This document shows, piece after piece, positions 1 to 48,368 of a DNA stretch of 64,000 bases. The notes below the pieces were generated by a model. That model worked only from the letters and a program-made list of their open reading frames with translations. It searched no databases and was not told the origin of the DNA. A program made the position numbers and the translations under genes. Within the stretch, counting starts at the first letter, position 1; every line of letters starts with the position of its first letter. Origin of the DNA: Aminobacter anthyllidis. GTDB lineage: Bacteria > Pseudomonadota > Alphaproteobacteria > Rhizobiales > Rhizobiaceae. The stretch is from contig NZ_JAFLWW010000003.1 of the NCBI RefSeq assembly GCF_018555685.1, positions 186,001-250,000 of the forward strand. Direction: 5' to 3'.

Positions 1-886
1 GCCCGAAAAGATCTCGACGCTGCACCGGAAGTTCGTCGAAGCCGGCGCCGACATCATCCTCACCAACTCGTTCGGCGGCACCCGTCACCGGCTCAAGCTG
101 CATCACGCCCAGGACCGGGTTCACGAACTCAACAAGCGCGCTGCCGAAATCGCCCGCGCCGTTGCCGACAAGGCCGGCCGCAAGGTTGTCGTTGCCGGCT
201 CCGTCGGCCCGACCGGCGAGCTTCTGGTTCCGCTCGGTGCCATGACTTATGACGAGGCAGTCGATGCCTTCGCCGAACAGATCGAAGGCCTCAAGGCCGG
301 TGGCGCCGAAGTCGCCTGGATCGAAACGATGTCCGCCCCGGACGAGATCCGCGCCGCTGCCGAGGCAGCCATCCGTGTCGGCCTGCCCTACACCTATACC
401 GGCTCGTTCGACACCGCCGGCCGCACCATGATGGGTCTGCTGCCCAAGGACATCCACGGCGTTGTCGACGGCCTTGCCGAGACGCCGCTCGGCGTCGGCG
501 CGAACTGCGGCGTTGGCGCTTCCGACATCCTGGCCTCGCTGCTCGACATGAGCGAAGCCAGGCCGGATGCGACCATCATCATCAAGGGCAATTGCGGCAT
601 TCCGGAATTCCGCGGCACCGAGATCCACTATTCGGGTACGCCCGAACTGATGTCGGACTATGTCAGGCTCGCTGTCGATGGCGGCGCCAGGATCATCGGC
701 GGCTGCTGCGGCACCTCGTTCGAGCATCTGGCCGCGATGCGCAAGGCGCTCGACGCCCACAAGAAGGACGTTCGTCCAACCGTCGAGGCGATCATCGAGC
801 GCATCGGCCCGATGCGTAACAAGCTGGCCGCGCCGAACACCACGGAAACCAGCGAAGGCCGCCGCGAACGCCGCCGCCGCGGCTGA
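1..886 (+). CDS. bmt: Betaine-homocysteine S-methyltransferase family protein, 5' end outside window
   Basis: The reading frame is open from base 2, so the gene starts upstream of the window; about 294 codons are visible. The family moves a methyl group from betaine (or a related donor) to homocysteine, giving methionine and dimethylglycine, in the cytoplasm. The zinc-site signature is present: a Cys in GANCGVG and the Cys pair in GGCCGTS. An NSFGGTR motif near the start of the visible part is also typical. The tail after the barrel is short and arginine-rich. Rhizobia carry a gene of this type, called bmt in Sinorhizobium. It fits the betaine, dimethylglycine and sarcosine genes elsewhere in the window. 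A cobalamin-linked homocysteine methyltransferase domain is the main alternative, because the N-terminal part is missing. Confidence 0.82.
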   Translation, partial: PEKISTLHRKFVEAGADIILTNSFGGTRHRLKLHHAQDRVHELNKRAAEIARAVADKAGRKVVVAGSVGPTGELLVPLGAMTYDEAVDAFAEQIEGLKAGGAEVAWIETMSAPDEIRAAAEAAIRVGLPYTYTGSFDTAGRTMMGLLPKDIHGVVDGLAETPLGVGANCGVGASDILASLLDMSEARPDATIIIKGNCGIPEFRGTEIHYSGTPELMSDYVRLAVDGGARIIGGCCGTSFEHLAAMRKALDAHKKDVRPTVEAIIERIGPMRNKLAAPNTTETSEGRRERRRRG

Positions 887-4973: not shown

Positions 4974-4975
4974 GG

Positions 4976-10917: not shown

Positions 10918-10918
10918 C

Positions 10919-10935: not shown

Positions 10936-11009
10936 TGAATACGCCGTTCGGCCGACGATGGCAACAAGCGGAGCCAGGAAGCGGTTGGGCCAGCTCAAAT
11001 CGAGCCAGG

Positions 11010-11687
11010 TCAGAGGCCGGCGTAGCTCTTCATATGGAAGGCCTGCACGTCGTCCGGATAGCGGTAGGCCGTGCCGTAGGGACAGGCATTGCGATCGCGG
11101 CACCCTTGCGTCCGGCAGGCACCTCCCGATGGGCCGCGAACATGCCCGAGGCATTGCTCATAGGCAAACCCCGTCTCGGAATAGGCACTGACGGGGCAGG
11201 ATTTCAGACAAGGTTTTCCAACACATAGGTCGCAAAGATGACTCTGTTTGCGAACTTCGCCGAATTGCAGCTCGACTTCAAACAGCAACGCGCCCCGATA
11301 GGCATGCCACAGCCCATATTCAGGATGCATCAGGATGCCGAGCGGCGACGGCCTGAGCCCTTCCGCGCGCATCGCCCATTGCTGGAACGGCAGATAGGGC
11401 TTGTCGGACGGCGACACCGCGCGCGCCCCGAACACAAGCGCCACGGCGCCGATCACCTCGCGCGACCAGCTGTCGAGCGGGTTGTCGGGACTGGCCGGCT
11501 GCGCCTCGCGCCAACGTTGGAAATGCGGCCAGGGCGCGGCACCCGCCTGCCCCACCAGCAGCACCGATCGCGCTGGCCTGCCCGCCGGGCCGTCCGGCGC
11601 GACATCGCCATCGCCAAAAACAAGACCGCCGCGCTGGATGAGGCCATAAGCGGCCAGCGCGGCGGAAATATTCTGAACAATGCGCAT
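11010..11687 (-). CDS. CblC-like corrinoid-handling protein fused to a ferredoxin-type Fe-S domain (predicted)
   Basis: 225 residues, with GAGGGGCG before the ATG. The N-terminal two thirds contain PLGILMHPEYGLWHAYRGALL (His121 to Gly132). This resembles the human MMACHC (CblC) segment with HPRFGGWFAIRG, including the Arg equivalent to MMACHC Arg161, and more loosely the QueG catalytic region. The C-terminal part holds a Fe-S ligand set at Cys152, 155, 160 and 164 (CDLC....C...CP), then further cysteines at 191, 196 and 202. MMACHC removes upper ligands from cobalamins. An attached ferredoxin would supply electrons. The gene lies beside the MttB-type methyltransferase, on the same strand but separated from it by a repeat. 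A cobalamin reductase or dealkylase role is inference; a plain ferredoxin or a QueG relative are alternatives. Confidence 0.65.
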   Translation of the reverse strand: MRIVQNISAALAAYGLIQRGGLVFGDGDVAPDGPAGRPARSVLLVGQAGAAPWPHFQRWREAQPASPDNPLDSWSREVIGAVALVFGARAVSPSDKPYLPFQQWAMRAEGLRPSPLGILMHPEYGLWHAYRGALLFEVELQFGEVRKQSHLCDLCVGKPCLKSCPVSAYSETGFAYEQCLGHVRGPSGGACRTQGCRDRNACPYGTAYRYPDDVQAFHMKSYAGL

Positions 11688-11689
11688 CG

Positions 11690-11806
11690 CCCCTCATCCC
11701 CCTGCCGGGACCTTCTCCCCGTGAACGGGGAGAAGGAGGCTAGTCGCTACGCTGACGTCCCCCTCGCCCCGTTTACGGGGAGAGGGTAAGGGTGAGGGGC
11801 AGCGCG
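11690..11806. repeat. RIME-like rhizobial intergenic palindromic repeat
   Basis: Two hairpins lie in tandem: CCTTCTCCCCG-tgaa-CGGGGAGAAGG at about 11719-11744, and a second built on CCCTCGCCCCG / CGGGGAGAGGG with flanking CCCTCA-type ends. This is the known layout of rhizobial intergenic mosaic elements. Its left edge supplies the GAGGGG Shine-Dalgarno of the adjacent ferredoxin-fusion gene. Confidence 0.8.
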
Positions 11807-11912
11807 AACGCATCAAGCGTTACCCCTTCTTGTCCGGCTCGGAGAATGCGCTCCGCCAGACTTCCTTGTGAATGATGCTGGCGACTTTAGCCCCGCCTGT
11901 ATCGGGCTCCCT

Positions 11913-13487
11913 TCAAGTGAAGGCGTCGGGCATCGACGCCTTCTTCGCGGCGATGAAGTCCTTGAGGCCGTCGTCGATGCTCGGATCGAGATATGGCGCC
12001 TCGTAGCTTTCGAGCCAGCGTCGGGCGAGCTCGTTGGCGCGCTGCGGCGCGGACTTCTGGCCCTCGGCCAGCCACTGCTCGTAGGAATTGTTGTCGGCGA
12101 TACTGGAGCGGTAGAACGCCGACTGGAAGTTGGCCTGGGTATGGTCGCAGCCGAGATAGTGGCTGCCGGGCCCGACCTGGCGGATGGCGTCCATCGCCTG
12201 GCCGTTCTCGGAGAGATCGACGCCCTCGGCAAATTTCTGCTGCATGCCGAGCTGGTCGATGTCCATCATGAACTTCTCGTAGCACGAGGCGAGGCCGCCC
12301 TCGAGCCAGCCGGCCGAATGCAGCACGAAATTGGTGCCGGCAAGCAGCGTCGAGTTCAGCGTGTTGGCGCTTTCATAGGCCGCCTGCGCATCCGGAACCT
12401 TTGAAGCGCAGAGCGAACCGCCGGTGCGGAACGGCAGGCCGAGGCGGCGTGCGAGCTGGGCAGCGCCGTAGGACACCAGCGACGGCTCCGGCGTACCGAA
12501 GGTCGGCGCGCCCGACTGCATCGAGATCGACGAGGCGAAGGTGCCGAACAGCACCGGCGCGCCCTTGCGGATCAGCTGGGTGAACGAGGCGCCGGCCAGC
12601 ACTTCGGCCAGGACCTGGGTCAGCGTGCCGGCAACCGTCACCGGGCTCATCGCGCCGGCAAGAATGAACGGCGTGACGATGCAGGCCTGGTTGTGACGTG
12701 CATAGACCTTCAGCGCGCCCAGCATGGTCTCGTCGAACACCATCGGCGAGTTGGCGTTGATCAAGCTGGTCAGAACCGTGTTGTTTTCGACGAAGTCGTC
12801 GCCGAACACGATCTTGGCCATCGCCACCGTGTCCTCGGCGCGCTCCGGCGCGGTGACCGAGCCCATGAACGGCTTGTCGGAATATTTGATGTGGCTGTAG
12901 ATCATGTCGAGGTGGCGCTTGTTGACGGGCACGTCGACAGGCTCGCACACGGTGCCACCCGAATGGTGGATCGACGGCGCCATATAGGCCAGCTTCACGA
13001 AGTTGCGGAAATCCTCGATCGTGGCATAGCGGCGGTTGCCGTCGAGATCGCGCACGAAGGGCGGGCCGTAGACCGGCGCGAAGACCGTGGCGTTGCCGCC
13101 GATCTGCACCGAGCGCTCCGAATTGCGCGCGTGCTGGGTATAGACGGACGGTGCCGTCTTCAACAGCGAGCGGCACAGGCCCTTGGGAAAGTGCACGCGC
13201 TCGCCCTTGACGTCGCAGCCGGCCTCTTTCCAAAGCTGGAGTGCTTCGGCGTCGTCGCGGAATTCGATGCCGATTTCCTCGAGCACGGTGTCGGCGTTCT
13301 TCTCGATGAGCGCCAGCCCCTCCTCGTTGAGGACCTCATAAACATTGATCTGACGCTTGATGTAAGTGAGCTGGGTGCCCGGACCGCCGCCCGAACGCGC
13401 CGCGCGCCGCGCCGCCGCTCCGCCGCTTGCGCCACGCCCGCGCCGCGCGTTCGACGCTTCCTGATCGGTCACGAGGTTTTCTGTCAT
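11913..13487 (-). CDS. MttB-superfamily (COG5598) methylamine:corrinoid methyltransferase, non-pyrrolysine
   Basis: 524 residues from ATG 13487, nine bases downstream of AGGG; ATGs at 13496 and 13493 lie too close to it. A low-complexity Gly/Ala/Arg leader (about 15-38) precedes the TIM-barrel domain. Archaeal MttB reads an in-frame amber codon as pyrrolysine; here the barrel is open throughout, as in the glycine betaine enzyme MtgB and other quaternary-amine members. The enzyme should transfer a methyl group from a quaternary or tertiary amine to Co(I) on the partner corrinoid protein, encoded divergently 250 bases away. Glycine betaine is the best guess given bmt and the dimethylglycine and sarcosine oxidases in the window. 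Proline betaine, carnitine and choline are alternatives. Cytoplasmic. Confidence 0.88.
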   Translation of the reverse strand: MTENLVTDQEASNARRGRGASGGAAARRAARSGGGPGTQLTYIKRQINVYEVLNEEGLALIEKNADTVLEEIGIEFRDDAEALQLWKEAGCDVKGERVHFPKGLCRSLLKTAPSVYTQHARNSERSVQIGGNATVFAPVYGPPFVRDLDGNRRYATIEDFRNFVKLAYMAPSIHHSGGTVCEPVDVPVNKRHLDMIYSHIKYSDKPFMGSVTAPERAEDTVAMAKIVFGDDFVENNTVLTSLINANSPMVFDETMLGALKVYARHNQACIVTPFILAGAMSPVTVAGTLTQVLAEVLAGASFTQLIRKGAPVLFGTFASSISMQSGAPTFGTPEPSLVSYGAAQLARRLGLPFRTGGSLCASKVPDAQAAYESANTLNSTLLAGTNFVLHSAGWLEGGLASCYEKFMMDIDQLGMQQKFAEGVDLSENGQAMDAIRQVGPGSHYLGCDHTQANFQSAFYRSSIADNNSYEQWLAEGQKSAPQRANELARRWLESYEAPYLDPSIDDGLKDFIAAKKASMPDAFT

Positions 13488-13518
13488 CGCCATCATCCCT
13501 GAAACACGTTTGGCCGCC

Positions 13519-13668
13519 TGTCGCAGCTCCTCGCGAGATCGTAGTCATGCACCCTAGGCGAAACGGCTTGCCAGCGCCAACGCCTGTCGCAAAATCGACA
13601 AGCAAGTCGACAACTTGTCAGTCGCTTTCGTTTTGCAGGAGGTCGCAAATCAGCTATGGATTTGCGGC
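13519..13668. promoter_or_regulatory. Divergent control region of mttB-type gene and corrinoid protein, with TGTCGCA elements
   Basis: TGTCGCA occurs at 13519-13525 and again at 13585-13591, where it forms TGTCG-N6-CGACA. A near-perfect inverted pair GTCGCAAAT / ATTTGCGGC spans 13642-13668. A GACAAG / CTTGTC inverted repeat lies at 13597-13619. The same TGTCGCAAA-like word appears upstream of the GlxA-type regulator and other N-methyl genes here, so it is a candidate activator site. Confidence 0.5.
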
Positions 13669-13737
13669 ACTTGCAAGCTAGGTATAGCGCAGTAGCCGCA
13701 CGCTGGATTTCGGCGCTGCATGAGGGAGCTTCCAAAG

Positions 13738-14436
<699 letters not shown>

Positions 14437-14440
14437 AGCA

Positions 14441-14470
14441 AAAGGGCCGCACCTTGCAGCGCGGCCCTTT
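14441..14470 (+). terminator. Rho-independent terminator after the corrinoid protein gene
   Basis: A 10-bp perfect stem (AAAGGGCCGC / GCGGCCCTTT) with a ten-base loop begins five bases past the stop. The A/T ends make it usable from both strands, so it also serves the convergent entericidin-like gene. Confidence 0.88.
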
Positions 14471-14504
14471 CATTCCGATCTAAAACGGACAGTGACATAG
14501 TGCC

Positions 14505-14639
14505 TTATTGGACTGTGTCCTCGATGGCGTTCGCTGTACCTTTGACATCCTTGCCGACGCCGCGAACAGTGTTGGCGCAGGCGGAAAGAGCAAGCGCACA
14601 AGCGATTATGGCGATCGGCGCAAGGCGTGACAGTTTCAT
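14505..14639 (-). CDS. Entericidin EcnA/B-like small lipoprotein
   Basis: A 44-residue protein with GGGAG ten bases upstream. The N-terminus (MKLSRLAPIAIIACALALSA-C) is a lipoprotein signal with lipobox LSAC, so Cys21 should be lipidated. The mature part, ANTVRGVGKDVKGTANAIED, matches the short amphipathic helix of entericidins, including the GxGKDVK core. Homologues are very common in alphaproteobacteria. In E. coli the pair behaves as a toxin-antidote lipoprotein system; only one member is visible here. It is convergent with the corrinoid protein gene. Confidence 0.85.
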   Translation of the reverse strand: MKLSRLAPIAIIACALALSACANTVRGVGKDVKGTANAIEDTVQ

Positions 14640-14708
14640 GGACGATGTCTCCCTCATCAAATTTGCAATATTTGCCTATCTGGAACGAAACCCGGCTAAA
14701 CTGGTTCC

Positions 14709-15371
14709 ATGACCGCCCTGCAAAAGCAAAAGCGTAGTCCAGGCGACAAACTTTCAGGCGAGAAGCTGCTTGTCATTGGCTGCGGCATGATCGCGCGCGA
14801 AGTACTGGCGGTGAAGCAGCGGCTGGGGCTCGATCACCTCGAACTGACCTGCTTGCCAGCTGATTTCCATTTCCACCCGAACCGGATCGCGCCGGCCATG
14901 GACAAGGCGATATCAGAGGCGAAAGCGGAAGGGTATCAGCACATCTATGTCGGCTACGCCGATTGCGGCACCGGCGGCCTGCTCGACCGTGTCTGCGAAA
15001 AACATGGTGTCGAGCGCATCGCCGGGCCGCATTGCTTTGCCTTCTATCAAGGCGCTGCTGCCTATGCCGTAGTCGGCGAAGCCGACATGATGTCGTTCTA
15101 CATGACCGATTTCCTGTGCCGCCAGTTCGAGGCTTTCTTCATCAAGCCGCTCGGCCTCGACCGGCATCCCGAGCTGGTGACGGACTATTTCGGCAACTAC
15201 GAGAAACTGATCTATCTCGCCCAGACTGACGATCCCGCGCTCGACAAGGTCGCCGAGGATGCGGCGGAGATGCTCGGCCTCGTCTATGAGCGCCGCGCCA
15301 CCGGTTATGGCGACCTGCCCGAGGTACTTGCCAAGGCAGCGGCCGCTGCGGCAGATCATCAAAGAGCCTGA
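14709..15371 (+). CDS. DUF1638 domain protein associated with MttB-type methyltransferases
   Basis: 220 residues, soluble. Conserved DUF1638 features are LLVIGCGMIAREV at the start, the LTCLPADFHFHPNRI segment, and VGYADCGTGGLLDR with the Cys of DCGTGG. It contains several Cys and His residues, including PHCFAFYQG. DUF1638 genes are repeatedly found next to MttB-family methyltransferases and corrinoid proteins, as here, but have no established activity. A role in corrinoid maturation or metal handling is a guess from co-occurrence. It has its own upstream region, 69 bases from the divergent entericidin gene. Confidence 0.82.
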   Translation: MTALQKQKRSPGDKLSGEKLLVIGCGMIAREVLAVKQRLGLDHLELTCLPADFHFHPNRIAPAMDKAISEAKAEGYQHIYVGYADCGTGGLLDRVCEKHGVERIAGPHCFAFYQGAAAYAVVGEADMMSFYMTDFLCRQFEAFFIKPLGLDRHPELVTDYFGNYEKLIYLAQTDDPALDKVAEDAAEMLGLVYERRATGYGDLPEVLAKAAAAAADHQRA

Positions 15372-15406
15372 TTCTTCACTTGAGGTTCGGCCTTTGGAGA
15401 GGTGCC

Positions 15407-15982
15407 ATGGCTGTTCGAAAACTGATTCTTGCTGCGGCCCTCGCCGCCACGGCGACCTTCGCGCATGCCGATGGCGTGGTGCAGAAGCTGATCACGCCGG
15501 CCGACAAGGCCAGGCTCGAAAAATACGACGCCACGCGCAAGGAAGCCCTTCAGGAGGCAAAGGCCGGCCTGGCAGGCGAGGTCGCCACACTCGACGCGAT
15601 CGTTGCCCAAAAGCCCTTGTCGTTTTCCGATTTCGACATGACCGGAAACTGGCAGTGCCGCACCATCAAGGCCGGCGGCTTGGGCGCGCTCGTCGTCTAC
15701 GGCTGGTTCAAGTGCAAGGTCACCGATGACGGCTCGGGCTGGATGCTGGAGAAAATCTCGGGCTCGCAGCGGACCAAGGGCCGCTTCTACACCGAAAGCG
15801 ACAACAGGTTGATCTATCTCGGCTCGGGCTTCGTCGCCGGCGACAAACCCAAGGCCTATGGCCGCGGCCCTGATGCCGACCAGGTCGGTTATGCCTTCAG
15901 ATCCGGACCGGCAGCATGGCGTATCGAGTTTCCCGCGCCGCGCTACGAATCCAAGCTCGACATCATTGAATTCCGGCGCTGA
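15407..15982 (+). CDS. DUF4893 secreted protein
   Basis: 191 residues from ATG 15407, with GGAGAGG six bases upstream. The signal peptide (LILAAALAATATFAHA) ends near residue 19. The mature part carries the family's DFDMTGNWQCRTIKAGG, a glycine-rich beta region, and the terminal block AWRIEFPAPRYESKLDIIEFRR. It contains two cysteines that could form a disulfide. The family has no known function and is periplasmic by prediction. It follows DUF1638 by 35 bases and could be cotranscribed, but nothing links it to methyl transfer. Confidence 0.83.
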   Translation: MAVRKLILAAALAATATFAHADGVVQKLITPADKARLEKYDATRKEALQEAKAGLAGEVATLDAIVAQKPLSFSDFDMTGNWQCRTIKAGGLGALVVYGWFKCKVTDDGSGWMLEKISGSQRTKGRFYTESDNRLIYLGSGFVAGDKPKAYGRGPDADQVGYAFRSGPAAWRIEFPAPRYESKLDIIEFRR

Positions 15983-16110
15983 TGTTGCATTCCGCGCGAA
16001 GCGACATCACATTCGCACCCTCCGGGGTCATCAAGGATTAACCTGGCCGTCGCACACTGCGATGGGGACTGGCGCGTTTGAAAGCGGGCCGCAAGTGGGC
16101 TGAAGGCTGA

Positions 16111-16770
16111 ATGCAAGGGCAAGAAAACCAATCCGACGCAGGCGAATTCGATGCGGCACCGAAGCGTCGCCGTGGCCGTCGTCTGTCCGCGATCTTCGCC
16201 CAGCTCGCCCGCGATGCCAAAGGAAACATCTCGATCGGCGATATCAGGGATACGCTGGGCAAACGCAGCTTCGCGCCGCTGCTGGTGCTGTTTGCCGCCT
16301 TCAACATGCTGCCTCTGCCGCCGGGTGCCTCGGCCGTACTTGGCCTGCCGCTGCTGATCGTCGCGGCACAAATGGCCTTCGGCAGTAACCGTGCCTGGCT
16401 GCCGACCTTCATCGCGCAGCGCTCACTGTCGGCGGAGCAGTTCCGCACCGTCACAGACTGGGTCATTCCGAGGCTTGTCCGCCTCGAACAGGTGGTTCGG
16501 CCGCGCTACTGGCCGTTCTGGCGCAAACGCGGCGACCGCGTCATCGGCATCATCGCGCTCATCTTGTCCGTCTCGATCACGCTGCCCATCCCGTTCGGCA
16601 ACTGGCTGCCAGCCTTCGCCACCGCCCTTCTTGGCCTGGCGTTGTCCGAGCGGGACGGCATCCTGTTTGCCGTAGGCAGCGCGGTCGGCGTGGCCTCGCT
16701 CGCCGTCGTCTGCGCGGTTGTCGGCGGCGCCGGCTTTGCCACGCACGCCTTCCTGGCATGGCTGGGGTAG
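16111..16770 (+). CDS. exoD: ExoD-family membrane protein
   Basis: 219 residues. After a basic N-terminus come hydrophobic segments with LLVLFAAFNMLPLPPGASAVLGLPLLIVAAQMAFG, a conserved ExoD block, and three to four more helices ending near the C-terminus. ExoD was described in Sinorhizobium as needed for normal exopolysaccharide production and alkaline tolerance; its molecular action is unknown. It sits five bases from the formyltransferase-like gene, probably in one transcript with it. Confidence 0.85.
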   Translation: MQGQENQSDAGEFDAAPKRRRGRRLSAIFAQLARDAKGNISIGDIRDTLGKRSFAPLLVLFAAFNMLPLPPGASAVLGLPLLIVAAQMAFGSNRAWLPTFIAQRSLSAEQFRTVTDWVIPRLVRLEQVVRPRYWPFWRKRGDRVIGIIALILSVSITLPIPFGNWLPAFATALLGLALSERDGILFAVGSAVGVASLAVVCAVVGGAGFATHAFLAWLG

Positions 16771-16775
16771 ACTGA

Positions 16776-17543
16776 ATGGACCGCAGGCCGATCGTCTTCG
16801 TCACCGAAGGCGGCGAACATATCTGGGCGATCATCAACAGCCTGACCGATCGCTTCGGCCCCATGACAGTCGTTCTGGAAACGCCTTACTCAAAGCGTGA
16901 GCTGCTGATACGCCGCGCCAAGAAGCTCGGCTGGATCTCCGTGGCCGGCCAGTTGGGCACCATGGTGCTCATCCGTGTCGCCAAACGTTTCCTGAACGGC
17001 GGCATCGAGCGCATCGTTGCCGAGGAAAAACTGGAAACCAGCCCACGCGTGGGCCAGGAGATCGTTTCGGTAGCCTCCGCCAATGGCCCTGAACTCGTCG
17101 AAATCGTCCATAAGCTCGAGCCGGCCACGGTGTTCCTCGCCAGCTGCCGGCTCTTGTCCGCCAAAACACTCGCCGCCATTCCCTGCCCGGTCATCAACTA
17201 TCATTCAGGCATCAATCCGAAATATCGCGGCATGAATGGCGGTTATTGGGCATTGGCCACTGGCGATCACGACAATTTCGGCTCGACCGTGCATGTCGTA
17301 GACGCTGGCGTCGACACCGGCTCGGTGCTGTACCAGTCCAGGGGAAAACCAGGCAAAGGCGACACCATCGCCAGCTACGCCATGCGCCAGGCCGCCTTTT
17401 CGCGCGACATTTGCGCCAAGGCTATCGAAGACGCGCTTGCCGGCCGACTCACGCCGGTCGACACCGGTCTGCCCTCGCGGCAATGGTACCATCCGACCAT
17501 CTGGCAGTACCTTTGGACAGGGATCCGCCGCGGCGTCTGGTAG
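16776..17543 (+). CDS. Formyltransferase-family protein (Formyl_trans_N)
   Basis: 255 residues. The catalytic triad of the family is intact: Asn141 and His143 in INYHSGINPKYRG, and Asp176 in VVDAGVDTG. These align with the Asn-His-Asp triad of methionyl-tRNA formyltransferase and GAR transformylase. It lacks the C-terminal OB domain of tRNA formyltransferases, so a small-molecule or sugar-amine acceptor is more likely, with 10-formyl-THF as donor. It directly precedes the folate genes (MetV, MetF, methyltransferase), but the upstream partner is exoD. Envelope-sugar formylation and one-carbon disposal are both possible roles. Confidence 0.78.
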   Translation: MDRRPIVFVTEGGEHIWAIINSLTDRFGPMTVVLETPYSKRELLIRRAKKLGWISVAGQLGTMVLIRVAKRFLNGGIERIVAEEKLETSPRVGQEIVSVASANGPELVEIVHKLEPATVFLASCRLLSAKTLAAIPCPVINYHSGINPKYRGMNGGYWALATGDHDNFGSTVHVVDAGVDTGSVLYQSRGKPGKGDTIASYAMRQAAFSRDICAKAIEDALAGRLTPVDTGLPSRQWYHPTIWQYLWTGIRRGVW

Positions 17544-17551
17544 ACGCTCCA

Positions 17552-17592
17552 GCGACAATCCAAGCTTTATCTTTTGCGACAACAGGTCGCGT
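17552..17592 (+). promoter_or_regulatory. Cluster of GCGACA/GGTCGC elements upstream of the folate operon
   Basis: GCGACA at 17552-17557, TTTTGCGACA at 17572-17581 and GGTCGC at 17585-17590 lie about 90-130 bases before the 17680 start. They match the TGTCGCAAA word found at the mttB-type promoter and at the GlxA-type regulator. An activator site is inferred. Confidence 0.4.
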
Positions 17593-17679
17593 CGCTTTTG
17601 AATGCGCGCGCGTCGTCCCATAACAAGCAGCACCCCCGTGGTTGCGGCAAAGCTCAACGTCACCAAAAGCGAGACCGAA

Positions 17680-17982
17680 ATGGCCGACCTGATCATCGTC
17701 TACTGGCGCGACATCCCTGCACAGGTCATCGTCAAGAAGGGCCGGCAGAACGCCAAGCGCGAATTGCCGCTGCGTTTCACCGAAGCGATCGACATGTGCG
17801 CCATGCGTACCGGCGCTGGCGACACCGACGCCTACCTCGCCGAGTGGCGCAAGGCCGAACCGGTCCCGGTCAGCGACGACCTTGAGGCGGAAGCCGACAA
17901 GGCCTTGGCTGAAATCGATGCGAATTTCACACGCGAGCGGCTGGTCGCTCTCGTCAAGGCAGGCGGCAAGGAAGATGGTTGA
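17680..17982 (+). CDS. 'Virulence factor' family small protein (PF13769-like) of the MetF operon
   Basis: 100 residues from ATG 17680; the longer frame to 17602 has an unlike leader. MADLIIVYWRDIPAQVIVKKGR is the recognisable core, followed by a helical, acidic C-terminus. The family is usually annotated only as a virulence factor and has no biochemical assignment. It is regularly found upstream of a MetV-like gene, as here, with an eight-base overlap. A structural or accessory role for the methylene-THF reductase is inferred. Confidence 0.75.
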   Translation: MADLIIVYWRDIPAQVIVKKGRQNAKRELPLRFTEAIDMCAMRTGAGDTDAYLAEWRKAEPVPVSDDLEAEADKALAEIDANFTRERLVALVKAGGKEDG

Positions 17983-18559
17983 TACCCAGCCGACGGTAAC
18001 CCAGGCGACTTTGGTCAAGAAGGCCGCGCCGAAAAGCGACTACAAGCCAGCCGATGTGTCGCCGCAGCGACGCGTCCAGCGCAGCTATACGATCAGGCTG
18101 TGGTCGATCCGCCACTCGCGCCTGCTCGAATGGTTCTACAGCCGCTTCGCGGACATGTTTCTGCTGCTCCATCCGCTGTGGAAGAAGATCGGTTATGGCC
18201 GCGTCGAGGCCCCGATCAAGTTTGTCGAGAAGCGGGTCAAGGGCCTGATGTTCGACTGCCGCATGTGCGGCCAGTGCGTGCTGTCTTCCACCGGCATGTC
18301 CTGCCCGATGAATTGCCCAAAACAGCTACGCAATGGCCCGTGCGGCGGCGTTCGTGCCAACGGCAATTGCGAGGTCGAGCCCGACATGCCCTGTGTCTGG
18401 GTCAAGGCCTGGGAAGGCTCGCGCAACATGGTCAAGGGCGACGCCATCCTCAACGTCCAGAAGCCGGTCGACCAGTCGCTGCGCGAAACCTCGGCATGGC
18501 TGAGGGTGACCGCACAAGCCGCCGCAACGCGCGAAACCGCCAGCAAGGAAGTTGCATGA
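17975..18559 (+). CDS. MetV-like MTHFR_C domain protein (zinc/Fe-S cysteine protein)
   Basis: 194 residues; ATG 17975 overlaps the previous stop and has AAGGAAG just upstream. The cysteine set is at residues 95, 98, 101, 110, 114, 123, 132 and 140 (DCRMCGQC, SCPMNCPK, NGPCGGV, MPC). This is the pattern of PF12225, which in acetogens is the MetV subunit that pairs with MetF in methylene-THF reductase. An N-terminal region with hydrophobic segments precedes it. The metF start overlaps its stop (ATGA), so the subunits should be made together. The likely job is electron transfer to or from MetF while methyl-THF is oxidised. Confidence 0.83.
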   Translation: MVDTQPTVTQATLVKKAAPKSDYKPADVSPQRRVQRSYTIRLWSIRHSRLLEWFYSRFADMFLLLHPLWKKIGYGRVEAPIKFVEKRVKGLMFDCRMCGQCVLSSTGMSCPMNCPKQLRNGPCGGVRANGNCEVEPDMPCVWVKAWEGSRNMVKGDAILNVQKPVDQSLRETSAWLRVTAQAAATRETASKEVA

Positions 18560-19656
18560 CCCCGCCGCGCCCGCGCCAGCCAGACGAACATCCCGATGGC
18601 ATCGACCTGCCGCTCGATCCCCTGCCCGGCCATTCTTCGCGCGGCCGCCTGGAGCGCGTGCTGCGTCGCGGCGAGTTCGCCGTCACCACGGAGCTGAACC
18701 CGCCCGACAGCGCCGACCCCGAAGACGTCTACAACCGCGCCAAGATCTTTGACGGCTGGGTCGACGGCATCAACGCGGTCGACGCGTCCGGTGCCAACTG
18801 CCACATGTCTTCCGTCGGCATCTGCGCACTGCTGACCCGCATGGGCTACGCGCCGATCATGCAGATCGCCTGCCGCGACAAGAACCGCATCGCCATCCAG
18901 GGCGACGTGCTCGGCGCCGCCGCCATGGGTGTCGCCAACATCCTGTGCCTTACCGGCGACGGCGTGCAGGCAGGCGACCAGCCCGGCGCCAAGCCGGTGT
19001 TCGACCTCGACTCGATGTCGTTGCTCGAAACAGTCCGCATCATGCGCGACAACGGAAAATTTCTCTCGGGCCGCAAGCTGAGCACACCACCGCAGCTTTT
19101 CCTTGGCGCGGCGGTCAACCCCTTCGCGCCGCCCTTTGATTTCAGGCCCATTCATCTGGGCAAGAAGATCGCCGCCGGCGCGCAGTTCGTGCAGAGCCAG
19201 TATTGCTTCGATGTGCCGATGTTCCGCACCTTCATGAACCGCGTGCGCGACCTGGGCTACGACGAAAAATGCTTCATCCTGGTCGGCGTCGGCCCGCTTG
19301 CGTCGGCCAAGACAGCCAAATGGATCCGCGCCAACGTGCCTGGAATCCACATTCCTGATGCAATCATCAAGCGCCTGGAAGGCGCCCAGGACCAGAAGAA
19401 GGAAGGCAAGCAGCTCTGCATCGACATCATCAACGAGGTCAAGGAAATATCAGGCGTATCGGGGGTCCATGTGATGGCCTACCGGCAGGAGGAATACGTC
19501 GCCGAGATCGTCGATGAATCGGGCGTGCTGAAAGGTCGTCGGCCATGGAAACGCGAGGCCCGTGCCGACGACCAGCGTGTCGCCGACCGGCTTGAGCACC
19601 TCCTGCACGACGACGTTACAGAATCGCAGGTCGACATGGTGAAGACCGCGCACTGA
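18556..19656 (+). CDS. metF: Methylenetetrahydrofolate reductase
   Basis: 366 residues. FAD-dependent TIM barrel: TTELNPPDSAD replaces the usual FEFFPP start, INAVDASGANCHMSS and CRDKNRIAIQGDVLGAAAMGV follow, and LCLTGD is the conserved strand motif. AQFVQSQYCFD and CFILVGVGPLASAKTAKW are also typical. Within this operon the enzyme probably runs in the oxidative direction, turning methyl-THF from the corrinoid route into methylene-THF, although biosynthetic use is possible. It is coupled to MetV. A 22-bp palindrome separates it from the methyltransferase gene. Confidence 0.9.
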   Translation: MTPPRPRQPDEHPDGIDLPLDPLPGHSSRGRLERVLRRGEFAVTTELNPPDSADPEDVYNRAKIFDGWVDGINAVDASGANCHMSSVGICALLTRMGYAPIMQIACRDKNRIAIQGDVLGAAAMGVANILCLTGDGVQAGDQPGAKPVFDLDSMSLLETVRIMRDNGKFLSGRKLSTPPQLFLGAAVNPFAPPFDFRPIHLGKKIAAGAQFVQSQYCFDVPMFRTFMNRVRDLGYDEKCFILVGVGPLASAKTAKWIRANVPGIHIPDAIIKRLEGAQDQKKEGKQLCIDIINEVKEISGVSGVHVMAYRQEEYVAEIVDESGVLKGRRPWKREARADDQRVADRLEHLLHDDVTESQVDMVKTAH

Positions 19657-19697
19657 CAGGCAGGCGCGGCTGCCGCGCTTGAACGAAAACAGACAAC

Positions 19698-19719
19698 GAT
19701 ATAAAGAAATCTTTATATC
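19698..19719 (+). promoter_or_regulatory. Perfect 22-bp palindrome upstream of the methyltransferase gene
   Basis: Arms GATATAAAGA and TCTTTATATC flank a central AA, 15 bases before the ATG at 19734 and just before AGGGAGA. An AT-rich, perfectly symmetric site of this kind suits an ArsR-type regulator. A SahR-like (S-adenosylhomocysteine-responsive) regulator is one possibility because the gene is in one-carbon metabolism. No ArsR gene lies in the window. Confidence 0.6.
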
Positions 19720-19733
19720 TTAGGGAGAACTTC

Positions 19734-20702
19734 ATGACCCGCACGATCGTCGCTTCGGCGACCCGCGAAATCGTTATCGGTTTCGACCAACCTTTCTGCG
19801 TCATTGGTGAGCGAATCAATCCGACCGGCCGCAAGAAGCTGGCCGCCGAGATGGTCGCCGGCAATTTCGAGACCGTCATCAGGGACGCGCTGGAACAGGC
19901 AGCTTGCGGCGCGACGATGCTCGACATCAATGCCGGTGTCACCTCGGTCAACCCGAACGAGACCGAACCGGGCCTGCTGGTGCAGACGCTTGAGATCGTC
20001 CAGAACCTCGTCGACCTGCCGCTGGCGATCGACAGCTCCGTGTCGGCGGCAATCGAAGCTGCGCTCAAGGTTGCCAAGGGCCGGCCGCTGGTCAACTCCG
20101 TCACTGGCGAGGAAGAGAAGCTTGAGGCGATCCTGCCGCTGGTCAAGAAGTACAACGTGCCGGTGGTCGCCATCTCCAACGACGAGACCGGCATTTCGAT
20201 GGACCCGGACGTGCGTTTCGCCGTCGCCAAGAAGATCGTCGAGCGTTGCGCCGATTTCGGCATTCCAGCCCATGACGTCGTCGTCGATCCGCTCGTGATG
20301 CCTATCGGCGCGCTCGGCGATGCCGGACGCCAGGTCTTCGCGCTGCTGCGCCGCCTGCGCGAGGAGCTCAAGGTCAACACCACCTGCGGCCTGTCCAATA
20401 TCTCTTTTGGTCTGCCGCACCGCCATGGCATCAACGCCGCGTTCATCCCGATGGTCATCGGCGCCGGCATGACGTCAGCGATCATGAACCCGGTGCGGCC
20501 GCAGGAAATGGAAGCGGTCCGTGGCGCCAACGTGCTCAACGGCACCGACGAGCACTGCACCAACTGGATCAAGACCTACAAGGACTACAAGCCGTCGGAG
20601 GGTGGCCACGCCGTGGCAGCGCCGGTCGCCGTCAACGCACCGGGAGACGCCGCCGGCGGCCGTCGCCGCGGCGGACGCGAAGCCCGCATGTCGAGGGGAT
20701 AA
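19734..20702 (+). CDS. Corrinoid:tetrahydrofolate methyltransferase, pterin-binding domain (MtgA/AcsE-like)
   Basis: 322 residues with AGGGAGA upstream. A dihydropteroate-synthase-like barrel spans FCVIGERINPTGRKKLAAEM, ATMLDINAGVTSVNP, LAIDSSVSAAIEAAL and VNSVTGEEEK. The NTTCGLSNISFGLPHR block is the mark of methyl-THF:corrinoid methyltransferases and of the MetH folate module. The expected reaction moves the methyl group from the methylated corrinoid protein (13.7 kb) to THF. The C-terminus ends in a Gly/Arg-rich tail (GGRRRGGREARMSRG). It has a palindromic site of its own, so expression may differ from metF. Confidence 0.9.
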   Translation: MTRTIVASATREIVIGFDQPFCVIGERINPTGRKKLAAEMVAGNFETVIRDALEQAACGATMLDINAGVTSVNPNETEPGLLVQTLEIVQNLVDLPLAIDSSVSAAIEAALKVAKGRPLVNSVTGEEEKLEAILPLVKKYNVPVVAISNDETGISMDPDVRFAVAKKIVERCADFGIPAHDVVVDPLVMPIGALGDAGRQVFALLRRLREELKVNTTCGLSNISFGLPHRHGINAAFIPMVIGAGMTSAIMNPVRPQEMEAVRGANVLNGTDEHCTNWIKTYKDYKPSEGGHAVAAPVAVNAPGDAAGGRRRGGREARMSRG

Positions 20703-20705
20703 TTA

Positions 20706-21149
20706 ATGCCGAGACGCGAAGGCAACAAGTTCATCACCAAATGGATGACATTTGATGCCACGTTCCCTCCCAGCGGCGACTGGGAGGGAACGTACGCGAG
20801 ACAGTTTAGCTCAGGCAAAACGTTCTCTGATTTCGTTGGCATGCTGACGCGAATTTTCTTCTGCATGTCGATATCCACAGTCTTCTACTTAAAGTGGAAA
20901 TCAGCAAGTTCAACGTTTGACGAAATATTGTCAGTTGTTGGAATTTTTGTATTCACAACATTGGCTCTCGGATTAACGTGGATGGTCGGCCTGATTACAT
21001 CGTCAGCCATGCTGAAATTTGGAAAAGATGGTGCATCAAAGGCCAAACGATCCGTAATATTCTTTTTGTCTCACATCATCTCATCTTCCGTCACGCTCTC
21101 AATAACGGTCGGATCGCTGTTTTTGATTGAGCGCTCAATGCTGAGGTGA
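20706..21149 (+). CDS. Small membrane protein of unknown family, AT-rich insertion
   Basis: 147 residues, starting three bases after the methyltransferase stop and ending just before the RACo start. Three hydrophobic segments are visible (about 40-60, 73-96 and 114-138). Base composition falls sharply to AT-rich from about 20,860 to 21,140, unlike both neighbours, and codon choice shifts with it. I recognise no family. The junctions lie exactly between two genes that belong together, which suggests a recent insertion without loss of coupling. A strong hairpin lies within its first 90 bases. Confidence 0.65.
   Translation: MPRREGNKFITKWMTFDATFPPSGDWEGTYARQFSSGKTFSDFVGMLTRIFFCMSISTVFYLKWKSASSTFDEILSVVGIFVFTTLALGLTWMVGLITSSAMLKFGKDGASKAKRSVIFFLSHIISSSVTLSITVGSLFLIERSMLR
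20760..20793 (+). other. Strong GC-rich hairpin inside the AT-rich insertion
   Basis: A 14-bp perfect stem (ACGTTCCCTCCCAG / CTGGGAGGGAACGT) has a six-base loop and lies 54 bases into the small membrane protein gene. No T run follows. It may limit readthrough from the methyltransferase gene into RACo, or be the scar of an inserted element. Confidence 0.6.
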
Positions 21150-21154
21150 TTGCA

Positions 21155-23257
21155 ATGAACTCTCCCGCCAACATCACCGACCCTCTTGTGCTGTTCATGC
21201 CATCGGGCAAGCGCGGCCGGTTTCCGGTGGGAACGCCGGTGCTCGACGCGGCGCGCACGCTTGGCGTCTATGTCGAAAGCGTGTGCGGCGGACGCGCCAC
21301 CTGCGGCCGCTGCCAGGTCGAGGTGCAGGAAGGCAATTTCGCCAAGCACAAGATCGTCTCGTCAAACGACCACATCTCGCCCAAGGGCCCCAAGGAAGAG
21401 CGCTACGAGCGCGTTCGCGGCCTGCCGGACGGCCGCCGCTTGTCCTGCTCGGCGACGATCCAGGGCGACCTCGTCATCGACGTGCCGCAGGACACCGTCA
21501 TCAACGCGCAGGTCGTGCGCAAGGCGGCGACCGACCGCGTCATCGAGCGCAACGCCGCCGTCCAGCTCTGCTATGTCGAGCTGGAAGAGCCCGACATGCA
21601 CAAGCCGCTCGGCGACCTCGACCGGCTGAAGGTCGCGCTCGAAAAGGACTGGGGTTGGAAAGACCTGCTGGTCGCACCCCATCTCATCGCGCAGGTCCAG
21701 AAGATCCTGCGTACCAAGCTGCCCGACCAGCCGGAAGTCAGCCCGGGCAAATGGGGCGTGACCGCCGTTGTCCACCGCGACATGGATTCGTCGCGCCCCT
21801 TCATCATCGGCCTGTTCCCCGGTTTGAAGAACGAAGCCTACGGCATCGCCTGCGACATCGGCTCGACGACGATTGCCATGCATCTCGTGTCGCTGCTGTC
21901 GGGCCGCATCGCCGCTTCGTCGGGCACGTCCAATCCGCAGATCCGCTTCGGCGAAGATCTGATGAGCCGTGTTTCCTATGTGATGATGAACCCCGACGGC
22001 CGCGAAGCCATGACCAAGGCCGTGCGCGAGGCCGTCAATGGACTCATCGGCAAGGTCTGCGAGGAAGGCCAGGCCAACCGCGAGGACATCTTCGACTGCG
22101 TCTTCGTCGCCAACCCGATCATGCACCACCTGTTTCTCGGCATCGACCCGACCGAACTCGGCCAGGCGCCGTTCGCGCTCGCAGTTTCGGGCGCGCTGCA
22201 GTTCTGGGCGCATGAGATCGACATCGAGGTCAATCGCGGCGCGCGCCTCTACACCTTGCCCTGCATCGCCGGCCATGTCGGCGCCGACGCGGCTGGCGCG
22301 ACCCTGTCAGAGGGACCATACCGCCAGGACAAGATGATGCTGCTGGTCGATGTCGGCACCAATGCCGAGATCATCCTTGGCAACAGGAACCGGGTCGTCG
22401 CCGCATCCTCCCCCACTGGCCCGGCCTTCGAAGGCGCCGAAATCTCCTCTGGCCAACGCGCGGCCCCAGGCGCCATCGAGCGCGTGCGCATCGATCCGGA
22501 AACTCTGGAGCCGAAGTACCGCGTTATCGGCACCGACAAATGGTCGGATGAAGACGGCTTCGACGAGGCATCGTGGACCACCGGTGTCACCGGCATCTGC
22601 GGCTCGGCGATCATCGAGGTGGTGGCAGAGATGTATCTGTCGGGCATCATCTCCGAAGATGGCGTCATCGATGGATCGATGGCGGAGAAAAGCCCGCGCA
22701 TCATCCCGAACGGCCGCACCTTCTCCTACCTGCTGCGAGAAGGCCGCCAGGGCGAGCCGCGCATCACCGTGACCCAGAACGACGTCCGCGCCATCCAGCT
22801 TGCCAAGGCAGCCCTTTACGCCGGCGTGAAGCTCTTGATGGAAAAACAAGGCGTCGAGACAGTCGACACGATCCGCTTCGCCGGCGCGTTCGGATCGTTC
22901 ATCGACCCGAAATACGCGATGGTCCTGGGCCTGATCCCCGATTGCGACCTCGACGAGGTCAAGGCTGTCGGCAATGCCGCCGGCACCGGCGCGCTGATGG
23001 CGCTGCTCAACCGCAACCATCGCCGCGAGATCGAGCAGGAAGTCGGCCGCATCGAAAAGATCGAGACCGCGCTCGAACCGCACTTCCAGCAGTTGTTCAT
23101 CGACGCCATGGCGCTGCCCAACAAGGTCGACCCGTTCCCCAAGCTGTCGGCGGCGGTCAAGCTGCCGCCGCGCAAGGCCAGTGAAGGCGAGCCGACGGAC
23201 GGCGCACCGCGCCGACGTTCGCGCGAGGAACGCGCGGCGCGCCGCTCCCGCGACTGA
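21155..23257 (+). CDS. RACo-type reductive activator of corrinoid protein (2Fe-2S ferredoxin + ASKHA domain, DUF4445)
   Basis: 700 residues from ATG 21155, with GAGGTGA as ribosome site; a GTG nine bases earlier would place that site inside the gene. The N-terminal ferredoxin has cysteines 44, 50, 53 and 98 (C-x5-C-x2-C ... C) for a [2Fe-2S] cluster. A linker precedes the ASKHA ATPase domain, with ACDIGSTTIAMHLV as phosphate loop and VDVGTNAEIILG and AGAFGSFIDPKYAM as further family blocks. Such proteins use ATP to reduce inactive Co(II) to Co(I) on the methyl-carrier protein. This links it to the corrinoid protein at 13.7 kb. The C-terminus is Arg-rich. Archaeal RamA, a 4Fe-4S protein, has the same job but a different fold. 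Confidence 0.92.
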   Translation: MNSPANITDPLVLFMPSGKRGRFPVGTPVLDAARTLGVYVESVCGGRATCGRCQVEVQEGNFAKHKIVSSNDHISPKGPKEERYERVRGLPDGRRLSCSATIQGDLVIDVPQDTVINAQVVRKAATDRVIERNAAVQLCYVELEEPDMHKPLGDLDRLKVALEKDWGWKDLLVAPHLIAQVQKILRTKLPDQPEVSPGKWGVTAVVHRDMDSSRPFIIGLFPGLKNEAYGIACDIGSTTIAMHLVSLLSGRIAASSGTSNPQIRFGEDLMSRVSYVMMNPDGREAMTKAVREAVNGLIGKVCEEGQANREDIFDCVFVANPIMHHLFLGIDPTELGQAPFALAVSGALQFWAHEIDIEVNRGARLYTLPCIAGHVGADAAGATLSEGPYRQDKMMLLVDVGTNAEIILGNRNRVVAASSPTGPAFEGAEISSGQRAAPGAIERVRIDPETLEPKYRVIGTDKWSDEDGFDEASWTTGVTGICGSAIIEVVAEMYLSGIISEDGVIDGSMAEKSPRIIPNGRTFSYLLREGRQGEPRITVTQNDVRAIQLAKAALYAGVKLLMEKQGVETVDTIRFAGAFGSFIDPKYAMVLGLIPDCDLDEVKAVGNAAGTGALMALLNRNHRREIEQEVGRIEKIETALEPHFQQLFIDAMALPNKVDPFPKLSAAVKLPPRKASEGEPTDGAPRRRSREERAARRSRD

Positions 23258-48056: not shown

Positions 48057-48068
48057 GGGCCTGATGTC

Positions 48069-48368
48069 ATGTTGATCACCTGCCCCTATTGCGGCCCGCG
48101 CGACGTCTCGGAATTCGCCTATCAGGGCGACGGCAACCGCACCCGCCCCGATCCTGCTTCGACCGATCCCGAGGCGTGGAACGCCTACGTCTATGACCGT
48201 CTGAACCCGGCGGGCCTCCACAACGAGATCTGGCAGCATGCCGGCGGCTGCCGCGCCCATCTCGCTGTCGTCCGCGACACGCTTACCCACGAAATCTCAA
48301 GCGTGCGCTTTGCACGTGAGCATGGCGCGCCCGCGCATGGTCGCCGCAAGCCAGGAGCCAAGGCATGA
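48069..48368 (+). CDS. soxD: Sarcosine oxidase subunit delta
   Basis: 99 residues, the normal size. It carries the zinc-binding start MLITCPYCGPRDVSEFAYQGD and ends with the Ala/Gly/Arg-rich tail usual for the subunit. DERPYVYDRLNP-type segments (YVYDRLNPAGLHNEIWQHAGGC) add the conserved His and Cys. It follows soxB by twelve bases and overlaps soxA by four. Confidence 0.95.
   Translation: MLITCPYCGPRDVSEFAYQGDGNRTRPDPASTDPEAWNAYVYDRLNPAGLHNEIWQHAGGCRAHLAVVRDTLTHEISSVRFAREHGAPAHGRRKPGAKA

What the first reader, a model, noticed from the sequence alone, without database searches (positions are those of the whole stretch)
11010..23257. Complete corrinoid-dependent methyl-transfer locus in a presumably aerobic rhizobium
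Seen: MttB-family methyltransferase, corrinoid protein, DUF1638, a PF13769-like protein, MetV, MetF, pterin methyltransferase and RACo within 12 kb. Known: this set is best studied in anaerobes (acetogens, methanogens). Inference: it strips methyl groups from a quaternary amine and burns them through methylene-THF, in parallel with the bmt and oxidase routes nearby. Running an oxygen-sensitive Co(I) system in an aerobe would need constant reactivation, which the RACo gene supplies. The substrate is not known.
Basis: partly seen in the sequence, partly recalled or inferred. Interest (0 to 1): 0.78.

Follow-up and report, generated by a model that had tools for sequence, protein, structure and literature searches.

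The report
Aerobic B12 betaine-demethylation and methionine locus
This stretch of a soil bacterium's genome holds a vitamin-B12 enzyme set that most likely strips methyl groups from glycine betaine and can also help make methionine; the set was described in 2025 in related aerobic bacteria, but two of its companion proteins look unrecognised.

Summary
It is the aerobic MtgBCDE system published in 2025 for Ruegeria and said there to be co-located in Sinorhizobium meliloti (PMC12478193). One corrinoid protein (MtgC) serves betaine demethylation (MtgB, MtgC, MtgD, then MetV-MetF) and, with MtgE at the window's left edge, methionine synthesis. 'Bmt' is therefore a module, not a parallel route. Glycine betaine is the likeliest substrate, but the genome has four MttB paralogues and nothing was assayed. 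Two parts look new. A 100-residue PF13769 ('Virulence factor') protein occurs in 47 of 48 MtgC genomes; without MtgC it appears once (partial) in 92 and never in 270. Where unlinked from mtgC it sits near metF and mtgD in 13 of 13 regions fetched, of 19 such genomes. A Cys-rich 225-residue protein beside mttB is modelled nearest to B12-handling proteins (MMACHC, QueG), with limited confidence. A new member of a known kind with overlooked parts.

The parts
2..886 (+). mtgE/bmt, homocysteine methyltransferase module (343 aa; gene starts upstream of the window at C23:185855)
   Evidence: PF02574 hit in own genome; ORF read across the window edge; best PDB sequence match is T. maritima MetH homocysteine domain, 146 bits, against human BHMT 49.6 bits
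11010..11687 (-). 225-aa Cys-rich protein; predicted CblC/QueG-like fold, Cys pattern suggesting [4Fe-4S] clusters; candidate corrinoid reductase or chaperone
   Evidence: no Pfam/NCBIfam hit at E 0.001; 28 invariant columns including 8 Cys in 40 sequences; AlphaFold2 model mean pLDDT 79, Cys-rich half weak; Foldseek best hit MMACHC E 2.9e-4, first QueG E 4.1e-3
11913..13496 (-). mttB-family corrinoid methyltransferase (MtgB candidate), 527 aa, non-pyrrolysine
   Evidence: PF06253 771.6 bits; close relative of PDB 4yyc (983.5 bits), 422.5 bits to 2qne; pocket residues
13720..14436 (+). mtgC, stand-alone corrinoid protein with DxHxxG motif at residue 118
   Evidence: PF02310 and PF02607; DIHDIG invariant in 14 aligned sequences; motif position
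14709..15371 (+). DUF1638 protein, implicated in cobalamin reactivation
   Evidence: PF07796 76.7 bits; found in 21 of 23 MtgC genomes and 0 of 92 others; genetics in Phaeobacter from PMC5764234 (passages)
16776..17543 (+). formyltransferase-like protein (frequent neighbour, role unclear)
   Evidence: PF00551 60 bits; in 37 of 65 full-flank loci
17680..17982 (+). 100-aa PF13769 ('Virulence factor') protein; proposed overlooked partner of the MetF/MtgD end
   Evidence: 93.5 bits; 27 invariant columns in 22 sequences; co-occurrence with MtgC; neighbours; overlaps metV by 8 bases
17975..18559 (+). metV-like, Cys-rich partner of MetF
   Evidence: PF12225 93.9 bits; overlaps metF by 4 bases
18556..19656 (+). 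metF, methylene-THF reductase family, probably running as methyl-THF oxidase here
   Evidence: PF02219 118.7 bits; the genome has another, better-scoring MetF at C23:427226 (300.6 bits)
19734..20702 (+). mtgD, pterin:corrinoid methyltransferase
   Evidence: PF00809 94.2 bits; PRK07535 396.5 bits, above cut-off 259
21146..23257 (+). RACo/RamA-type corrinoid reductive activase with N-terminal [2Fe-2S] domain (C-x5-C-x2-C ... C)
   Evidence: PF14574 298 bits, PF17651, PF17650, PF00111; N-terminal sequence
46797..51361 (+). sarcosine-oxidase-type genes (DAO protein 46797-48056, alpha-type subunit 48365-51361), plausible downstream demethylation of sarcosine
   Evidence: PF01266; PF17806 and PF01571

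Best explanation
The locus encodes the aerobic MtgBCDE corrinoid methyl-transfer hub. MttB (MtgB) moves a methyl group from a betaine, most likely glycine betaine, to Co(I) on MtgC. MtgD moves it on to tetrahydrofolate. MetV-MetF oxidises methyl-THF to methylene-THF for C1 metabolism, and the demethylated amine is finished by dimethylglycine- and sarcosine-type oxidases encoded nearby. MtgD can also run backwards so that MtgC and MtgE make methionine. RACo, with DUF1638, returns oxidised Co(II) to Co(I). Shown here: the genes, their conservation and co-occurrence. Shown in others' work on relatives: MtgC and MtgD in betaine use and methionine synthesis. Inferred: the substrate of this MttB, flux direction through MetVF, and the roles of the PF13769 and Cys-rich proteins.
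For: Domain assignments. Block conserved in the 65 full-flank loci as counted (of 80 fetched). Published genetics and proteomics in Ruegeria: mtgC and mtgD mutants are methionine auxotrophs and cannot use glycine betaine even with methionine; MtgBCDE is stated to be co-located in S. meliloti (PMC12478193; Results and Discussion read). Phaeobacter split methionine synthase with RamA-like and DUF1638 proteins (PMC5764234, passages). Of the four own-genome MttB paralogues this one is closest to D. hafniense MtgB (45.6% against 42.8, 36.6 and 29.6%). Four docking-proposed betaine-contact residues (Y94, N199, R309, H345) are kept in the window protein and in 64 of 64 orthologues read as ORFs. By PF02310 the genome has one MtgC-type corrinoid protein; the other four hits are MetH, a short one near a methylmalonyl-CoA-mutase-type large subunit, and two in frames of 718 and 740 aa that I did not examine. 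MtgE is MetH-like rather than BHMT-like. DUF1638 tracks MtgC: 21 of 23 against 0 of 92.
Against: No activity was tested. The fifth proposed contact residue F353 is Gly in the window protein and in 64 of 64 orthologues, so the pocket differs from D. hafniense MtgB. Another paralogue (C23:174771, L013) lies beside a DAO+GCV_T fusion of the dimethylglycine-dehydrogenase kind and could be the main glycine-betaine enzyme. The genome also has a full-length MetH (1269 aa, L173) and GbcAB-like genes, so neither methionine synthesis nor betaine use need depend on this locus. The NCBIfam models for the glycine-betaine corrinoid protein are matched but below their cut-offs (214.3 against 370, 177.6 against 310). 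Eight of the 65 full-flank loci have mtgC without PF13769, and nine lack a close MttB.
Confidence: 0.75

Rival explanations
1. The window's MttB acts mainly on another betaine (for example proline betaine, carnitine or gamma-butyrobetaine), and glycine betaine is handled by a paralogue such as C23:174771. The hub itself works as described.
For: Four MttB paralogues in the genome and, by PF02310, one MtgC-type corrinoid protein. F353 to Gly and an invariant L-E-G-G stretch in 64 of 64 orthologues. Paralogue L013:8660-10297 is next to a DAO+GCV_T fusion protein.
Against: A close orthologue of this MttB is in 56 of 65 full-flank mtgC loci; it is the paralogue closest to D. hafniense MtgB and keeps four contact residues.
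Confidence: 0.3
2. The locus is mainly an alternative (split) methionine synthase, with methyl groups flowing from MetVF through methyl-THF, MtgD and MtgC to MtgE, and betaine demethylation is minor.
For: The split synthase, RamA-like and DUF1638 genes are needed for methionine synthesis in Phaeobacter (PMC5764234, passages). MtgE was found in 46 of 65 full-flank loci.
Against: This genome has a full-length MetH and a separate better-scoring MetF. A close MttB is present in 56 of 65 loci, and MtgB, MtgC, MtgD, RamA and above all MetF2 rise on betaines in Ruegeria (PMC12478193).
Confidence: 0.12
3. It is a relic or a transferred anaerobic acetogen-type cassette with no aerobic function.
For: MetVF, RACo and AcsE-like families are well known from acetogens (recalled).
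Against: MttB orthologues in the fetched loci are 69-96% identical over long open frames; MtgC orthologues in 23 of 115 class genomes; aerobic function demonstrated in relatives.
Confidence: 0.03

Closest known systems
MtgBCDE of Ruegeria pomeroyi / split methionine synthase of Phaeobacter inhibens (PMC12478193, PMC5764234)
   Same: Same protein families for MtgB, C, D, E, RamA/RACo and DUF1638; aerobic alphaproteobacteria; S. meliloti is named there with the same co-located set
   Different: Here MetV-MetF stands where Ruegeria has MetF2; a full MetH is also present; 'virulence', 'MetV' and 'ferredoxin' do not occur in the main text of the 2025 paper, so the PF13769 and Cys-rich proteins seem not to be treated there (figures and supplements not seen)
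MtgABC of Desulfitobacterium hafniense and MtgBC of Methanolobus (anaerobic glycine betaine system)
   Same: Non-pyrrolysine MttB-family enzyme (45.6% identity to D. hafniense MtgB), corrinoid protein, RamA-type activase
   Different: MtgC is below the NCBIfam cut-offs for the MtgC models; the THF step is by an AcsE-like MtgD; shared with a methionine-synthase module
MMACHC (CblC), QueG and reductive dehalogenases, for the Cys-rich 225-aa protein
   Same: All 50 listed Foldseek rows are of these three B12-binding kinds; eight invariant Cys would suit two [4Fe-4S] clusters as in QueG (recalled)
   Different: 14-18% identity to human MMACHC chains, query TM 0.40-0.51, only 2 of 173 matches at E 0.001 or better; cluster half poorly predicted; no Pfam hit; shorter than QueG
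PF13769 'Virulence factor' family (the name 'conserved virulence factor C' is recalled)
   Same: PF13769 domain (93.5 bits); 1 of 14 control genomes rings, Bacillus subtilis
   Different: Stand-alone 100-aa protein tied to MtgC genomes; no PDB fold match (best E 0.22)

Membership tests
Aerobic MtgBCDE dual glycine-betaine demethylase / split methionine synthase | MttB-family (PF06253), non-pyrrolysine methyltransferase | tested here: met
   771.6 bits, open frame without internal stop
Aerobic MtgBCDE dual glycine-betaine demethylase / split methionine synthase | Stand-alone corrinoid protein with DxHxxG motif | tested here: met
Aerobic MtgBCDE dual glycine-betaine demethylase / split methionine synthase | Pterin-binding methyltransferase MtgD beside a MetF | tested here: met
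Aerobic MtgBCDE dual glycine-betaine demethylase / split methionine synthase | Stand-alone homocysteine module MtgE in the genome | tested here: met
   C23:185855 onward
Aerobic MtgBCDE dual glycine-betaine demethylase / split methionine synthase | RamA/RACo-type activase and DUF1638 | tested here: met
Aerobic MtgBCDE dual glycine-betaine demethylase / split methionine synthase | mtgC/mtgD needed for growth on glycine betaine and for methionine synthesis | not testable with these tools
   needs mutants; shown for Ruegeria in PMC12478193
Glycine-betaine corrinoid protein MtgC models (NF047996, NF047995) | Score above the curated cut-off | tested here: not met
   214.3 against 370 and 177.6 against 310 bits
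Glycine betaine methyltransferase MtgB | Docking-proposed contact residues Y94, N199, R309, H345, F353 of D. hafniense MtgB (PMC6855144, passages) | tested here: inconclusive
   first four kept, F353 replaced by Gly; the residues themselves rest on docking
Glycine betaine methyltransferase MtgB | Phylogenetic placement against MtpB and MtcB | not tested
   I obtained no MtpB or MtcB sequence
Betaine-homocysteine methyltransferase (BHMT) | Closest relative is BHMT rather than MetH | tested here: not met
   MetH homocysteine domain 146 bits, BHMT 49.6 bits; betaine-binding residues not compared here
QueG / MMACHC (for the Cys-rich 225-aa protein) | Recognised by a family profile | tested here: not met
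   no Pfam or NCBIfam hit at E 0.001
QueG / MMACHC (for the Cys-rich 225-aa protein) | B12-binding CblC fold | tested here: inconclusive
   Foldseek best E 2.9e-4, TM 0.47; 2 of 173 matches at E 0.001 or better; all 50 listed rows are MMACHC/CblC, QueG or reductive dehalogenases

The most novel reading that the evidence does not exclude
The 100-residue PF13769 'virulence factor' protein is a missing core component of the aerobic cobalamin methyl-transfer hub, acting at the MetF/MtgD (methyl-THF) end. The Cys-rich protein beside mttB is a minimal CblC/QueG-like iron-sulphur B12 reductase or chaperone that helps an oxygen-exposed cell keep its corrinoid usable. Together these would add two unassigned protein families to the parts list of aerobic betaine demethylation and split methionine synthesis.
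Probability: 0.5. Interest if true: 0.65.

Novelty: new member of a known kind. Interest (0 to 1): 0.45.

Why it matters
It moves the finding from 'anaerobic cassette in an aerobe, substrate unknown' to a specific, testable member of the 2025 MtgBCDE system in rhizobia, where the best-known 'Bmt' gene seems misassigned. No paper in the held library contains the term PF13769, yet the protein tracks MtgC almost perfectly in the Pseudomonadota sampled. A single deletion in S. meliloti or Phaeobacter could show whether a family now labelled 'virulence factor' is a B12/folate methyl-transfer part, which would correct the annotation of many alphaproteobacterial genomes.

Tried and rejected
Considered and rejected or weakened. 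(1) Bmt as an independent betaine-homocysteine route: sequence is nearer MetH. (2) An acetogen-type carbon-fixing cluster: relatives of the set work in aerobes. (3) The Cys-rich protein as a strict partner of MtgC: in the class draw it occurs in 15 of 23 MtgC genomes but also in 8 of 92 without; in the 14 other genomes that have both, it is on a differently numbered contig from mtgC in 14 of 14; four MtgC-less neighbourhoods fetched showed no other hub gene at E 1e-4. Its neighbourhood with mttB is a feature of the Rhizobiaceae-type loci (55 of 65). (4) PF13769 as a mere hitch-hiking neighbour: disfavoured because it co-occurs where unlinked. (5) PF13769 fold: no PDB match. (6) tRNAs, and Rfam families at gathering score: none in the window. 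(7) Phylogeny against MtpB and MtcB was not done. (8) PDB sequence searches with the Cys-rich protein, DUF1638 and PF13769 gave nothing below E 0.05.

Against my own reading. Price et al. name five methionine genes in Phaeobacter and PF13769 is not among them in the passages I saw. G208 has MtgC, DUF1638 and MtgD but no PF13769. G007 (810 contigs, no MtgC orthologue) has a partial PF13769 hit, on the same contig as a distant pterin methyltransferase, 37% identity. PF13769 was not found within the flanks of 8 of 65 full-flank loci, some of which may carry it elsewhere (not checked for those). Six of the 19 genomes with unlinked PF13769 were not fetched (G001, G048, G061, G074, G311, G340; in G074 one search places MtgD on the same contig). 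Rows dropped: the G081 MtgC hit (44% identity) was not counted as an orthologue; 15 of 80 loci with short flanks were left out of the gene counts; MttB relatives from L054, L121, L123 and the own paralogues were left out of the 64 orthologues, and loci whose MttB was not read as an ORF of 300-750 aa (for example L072, L082, L109) were not in it.


Full report
What is there. The window is part of a 6.71 Mb, 30-contig genome (contig C23:186001-250000). The closest named relative by MtgC among the loci returned is Aminobacter ciceronei (98% identity; records very near the own genome may be left out there), so 'rhizobium' in the broad sense is right. On the plus strand PF13769 overlaps metV by 8 bases and metV overlaps metF by 4. 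On the minus strand mttB is followed after 225 bases by a 225-aa Cys-rich protein.

Is it conserved? I searched each with the window's proteins. Of the 65 with full flanks: DUF1638 63, PF13769 57, MtgD 57, MttB (over 60% identity) 56, RACo 56, Cys-rich protein 55, MetV 46, MetF 46, MtgE 46, formyltransferase-like 37, the secreted protein 23, ExoD 22, GntR 8, small membrane ORF 0. MtgE lies up to the edge of the flanks, so its count is a lower bound. L054 and L078 hold mtgC without most of the block (L054 has an MttB of 48% identity); L101, cut at the start of its contig, has none of the block downstream of mtgC; L111, L116, L121, L123 and L124 have little of it.

What it is. Mausz et al. 2025 (PMC12478193; abstract and introduction, Results and Discussion, passages; figures and supplements not seen) show in Ruegeria pomeroyi that MtgC and MtgD serve both glycine-betaine demethylation and methionine synthesis, name MtgE as the homocysteine module and link RamA and DUF1638 to reactivation. 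They state that in S. meliloti MtgBCDE, the two reactivation modules and the cobalamin operon are co-located, and argue that S. meliloti Bmt is MtgE. Price et al. 2018 (PMC5764234; passages) had shown the split methionine synthase with RamA-like and DUF1638 proteins in Phaeobacter. The window's locus is a further member of this system. My own test of Bmt agrees: the window's gene (starting 146 bases upstream of the window) matches the MetH homocysteine domain at 146 bits and human BHMT at 49.6. The genome also has a full-length MetH (L173:2285-6094, 1269 aa).

Which betaine? PDB 4yyc is a close relative of the window's MttB (983.5 bits; recalled to be from S. meliloti), and 2qne and 9yce (9yce is named glycine betaine methyltransferase) match at about 422 bits. 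Four of five residues that docking proposed for betaine contact in D. hafniense MtgB (PMC6855144, passages) are kept in the window protein and in 64 of 64 orthologues read as ORFs; the fifth, F353, is Gly in the window protein and in all 64. The own genome has four MttB paralogues and, by PF02310, one MtgC-type corrinoid protein, so several betaine-specific enzymes may feed one corrinoid protein. One paralogue (C23:174771) lies beside a DAO+GCV_T fusion protein. Another (C12:62934) lies near an OYE-family flavoprotein that is 84% identical to one near an extra mtgC in Mesorhizobium ciceri WSM4083 (L101), where an enolase-superfamily protein related to PDB 4e8g and 2pmq also sits; from memory those structures are hydroxyproline-betaine epimerases. 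The enolase-superfamily gene near the own-genome C12 paralogue is only 34% identical to that of L101. This suggests proline-type betaines for that paralogue; it is a lead only.

The MetF slot. In 11 of the 80 loci PF13769 and MtgD are present without MetV. Nine of these have a different ORF of 288-325 aa in the slot, alike among themselves by eye, and two have none. The one I scanned (L102) is PF02219 at 25.9 bits, just over the cut-off of 24. In 12 of the 13 unlinked regions described below the same kind of MetF stands next to PF13769 (41-54% identity to the L102 protein). That one slot can be filled by two unlike methylene-THF reductases fits a role in oxidising methyl-THF. The own genome has another, better-scoring MetF at C23:427226.

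PF13769. In 115 class genomes (listed ones each with a different family label) MtgC orthologues of 74% identity or more occur in 23 (E 1e-40 or better), and PF13769 in those 23 plus one partial hit, G007 (Fisher p about 3e-23). In 299 phylum genomes MtgC occurs in 29 (E 1e-60 or better) and PF13769 in 28, all within the 29; the exception is G208 (p about 2e-38). Four MtgC genomes (G000, G022, G037, G107) are in both draws, so the union is 47 of 48. The phylum draw is not phylogenetically even (its positives are mainly from two families), so the class draw is the stronger test, and the p-values take no account of kinship. In 19 of the 47 genomes PF13769 lies on another contig or more than 20 kb from mtgC; I fetched 13 of these, and in 13 of 13 it is near a MetF and MtgD. 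G154 has PF13769 next to MtgD without a MetF found between. So the tie is to MtgD and MetF as much as to MtgC. The model is confident (pLDDT 92.7), has no PDB match (best E 0.22), and the invariant residues include no Cys or His, so a structural or adaptor role seems likelier than redox chemistry. No held paper contains PF13769, and 'virulence' does not occur in the main text of Mausz et al..

The Cys-rich protein. All 50 listed Foldseek rows are MMACHC/CblC, QueG or reductive dehalogenases, but only 2 of 173 matches reach E 0.001; eight Cys are invariant in 40 sequences. Confidence is limited: query TM 0.40-0.51 for human MMACHC rows, block-mean pLDDT of 70 or less after residue 150, and no family profile recognises it. 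It associates with MtgC genomes (15 of 23 against 8 of 92, p 5e-8) but not strictly. One literature search showed no title on such a bacterial protein (10 of 18 papers listed).

Verdict. What is new here is the PF13769 association and the B12-fold candidate beside mttB; I saw no experiment on either.

Noticed in passing
L054 (Mesorhizobium sophorae) 6655-11905 and L101 (M. ciceri WSM4083) 1-5752: mtgC beside an enolase-superfamily protein related to PDB 4e8g (L101 copy 478.5 bits; L054 copy 95% identical to it), with an MttB 48% identical to the window's and an extracellular solute-binding protein in L054, and an OYE-family flavoprotein in L101: possible proline- or hydroxyproline-betaine demethylation cluster.
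   Followed up: partly
L015 (own genome C12:56000-72000) 1177-8677: The C12 MttB paralogue lies near an OYE-family flavoprotein (84% identical to that of L101) and an acyl-CoA dehydrogenase; a nearby enolase-superfamily gene is only 34% identical to L101's. Candidate for another betaine.
   Followed up: partly
L173 (own genome C27:275000-290000) 2285-8866: GbcA-like and GbcB-like genes directly downstream of metH on the same strand; both score below the NCBIfam cut-offs (519.2 against 670; 361.8 against 500). A second GbcA-like gene (360.4 bits) lies on contig C25.
   Followed up: partly
L170 (own genome C25, around 20-22 kb): A GcvT/DmdA/LigM-like demethylase beside a weak MetF relative (21.5 bits, under the cut-off), another possible source of methyl-THF.
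   Followed up: no
window 30224-32884 (-), 56009-58546 (+), 60334-62856 (+): Long ORFs; the first was scanned and is a DAO+FAO_M+GCV_T protein, the kind recalled from dimethylglycine dehydrogenase; the other two were seen only as ORFs and not scanned.
   Followed up: no
window 39167-43493 (-): NAD-dependent epimerase-like protein, DprE1-like oxidase (329 bits, cut-off 500) and a HAD+UbiA fusion in a row; may be a decaprenylphosphoryl-arabinose-like sugar pathway.
   Followed up: no
G208 (L159, L178): A genome with MtgC, DUF1638 and MtgD but no PF13769: the one exception to the co-occurrence, useful as a natural test.
   Followed up: partly
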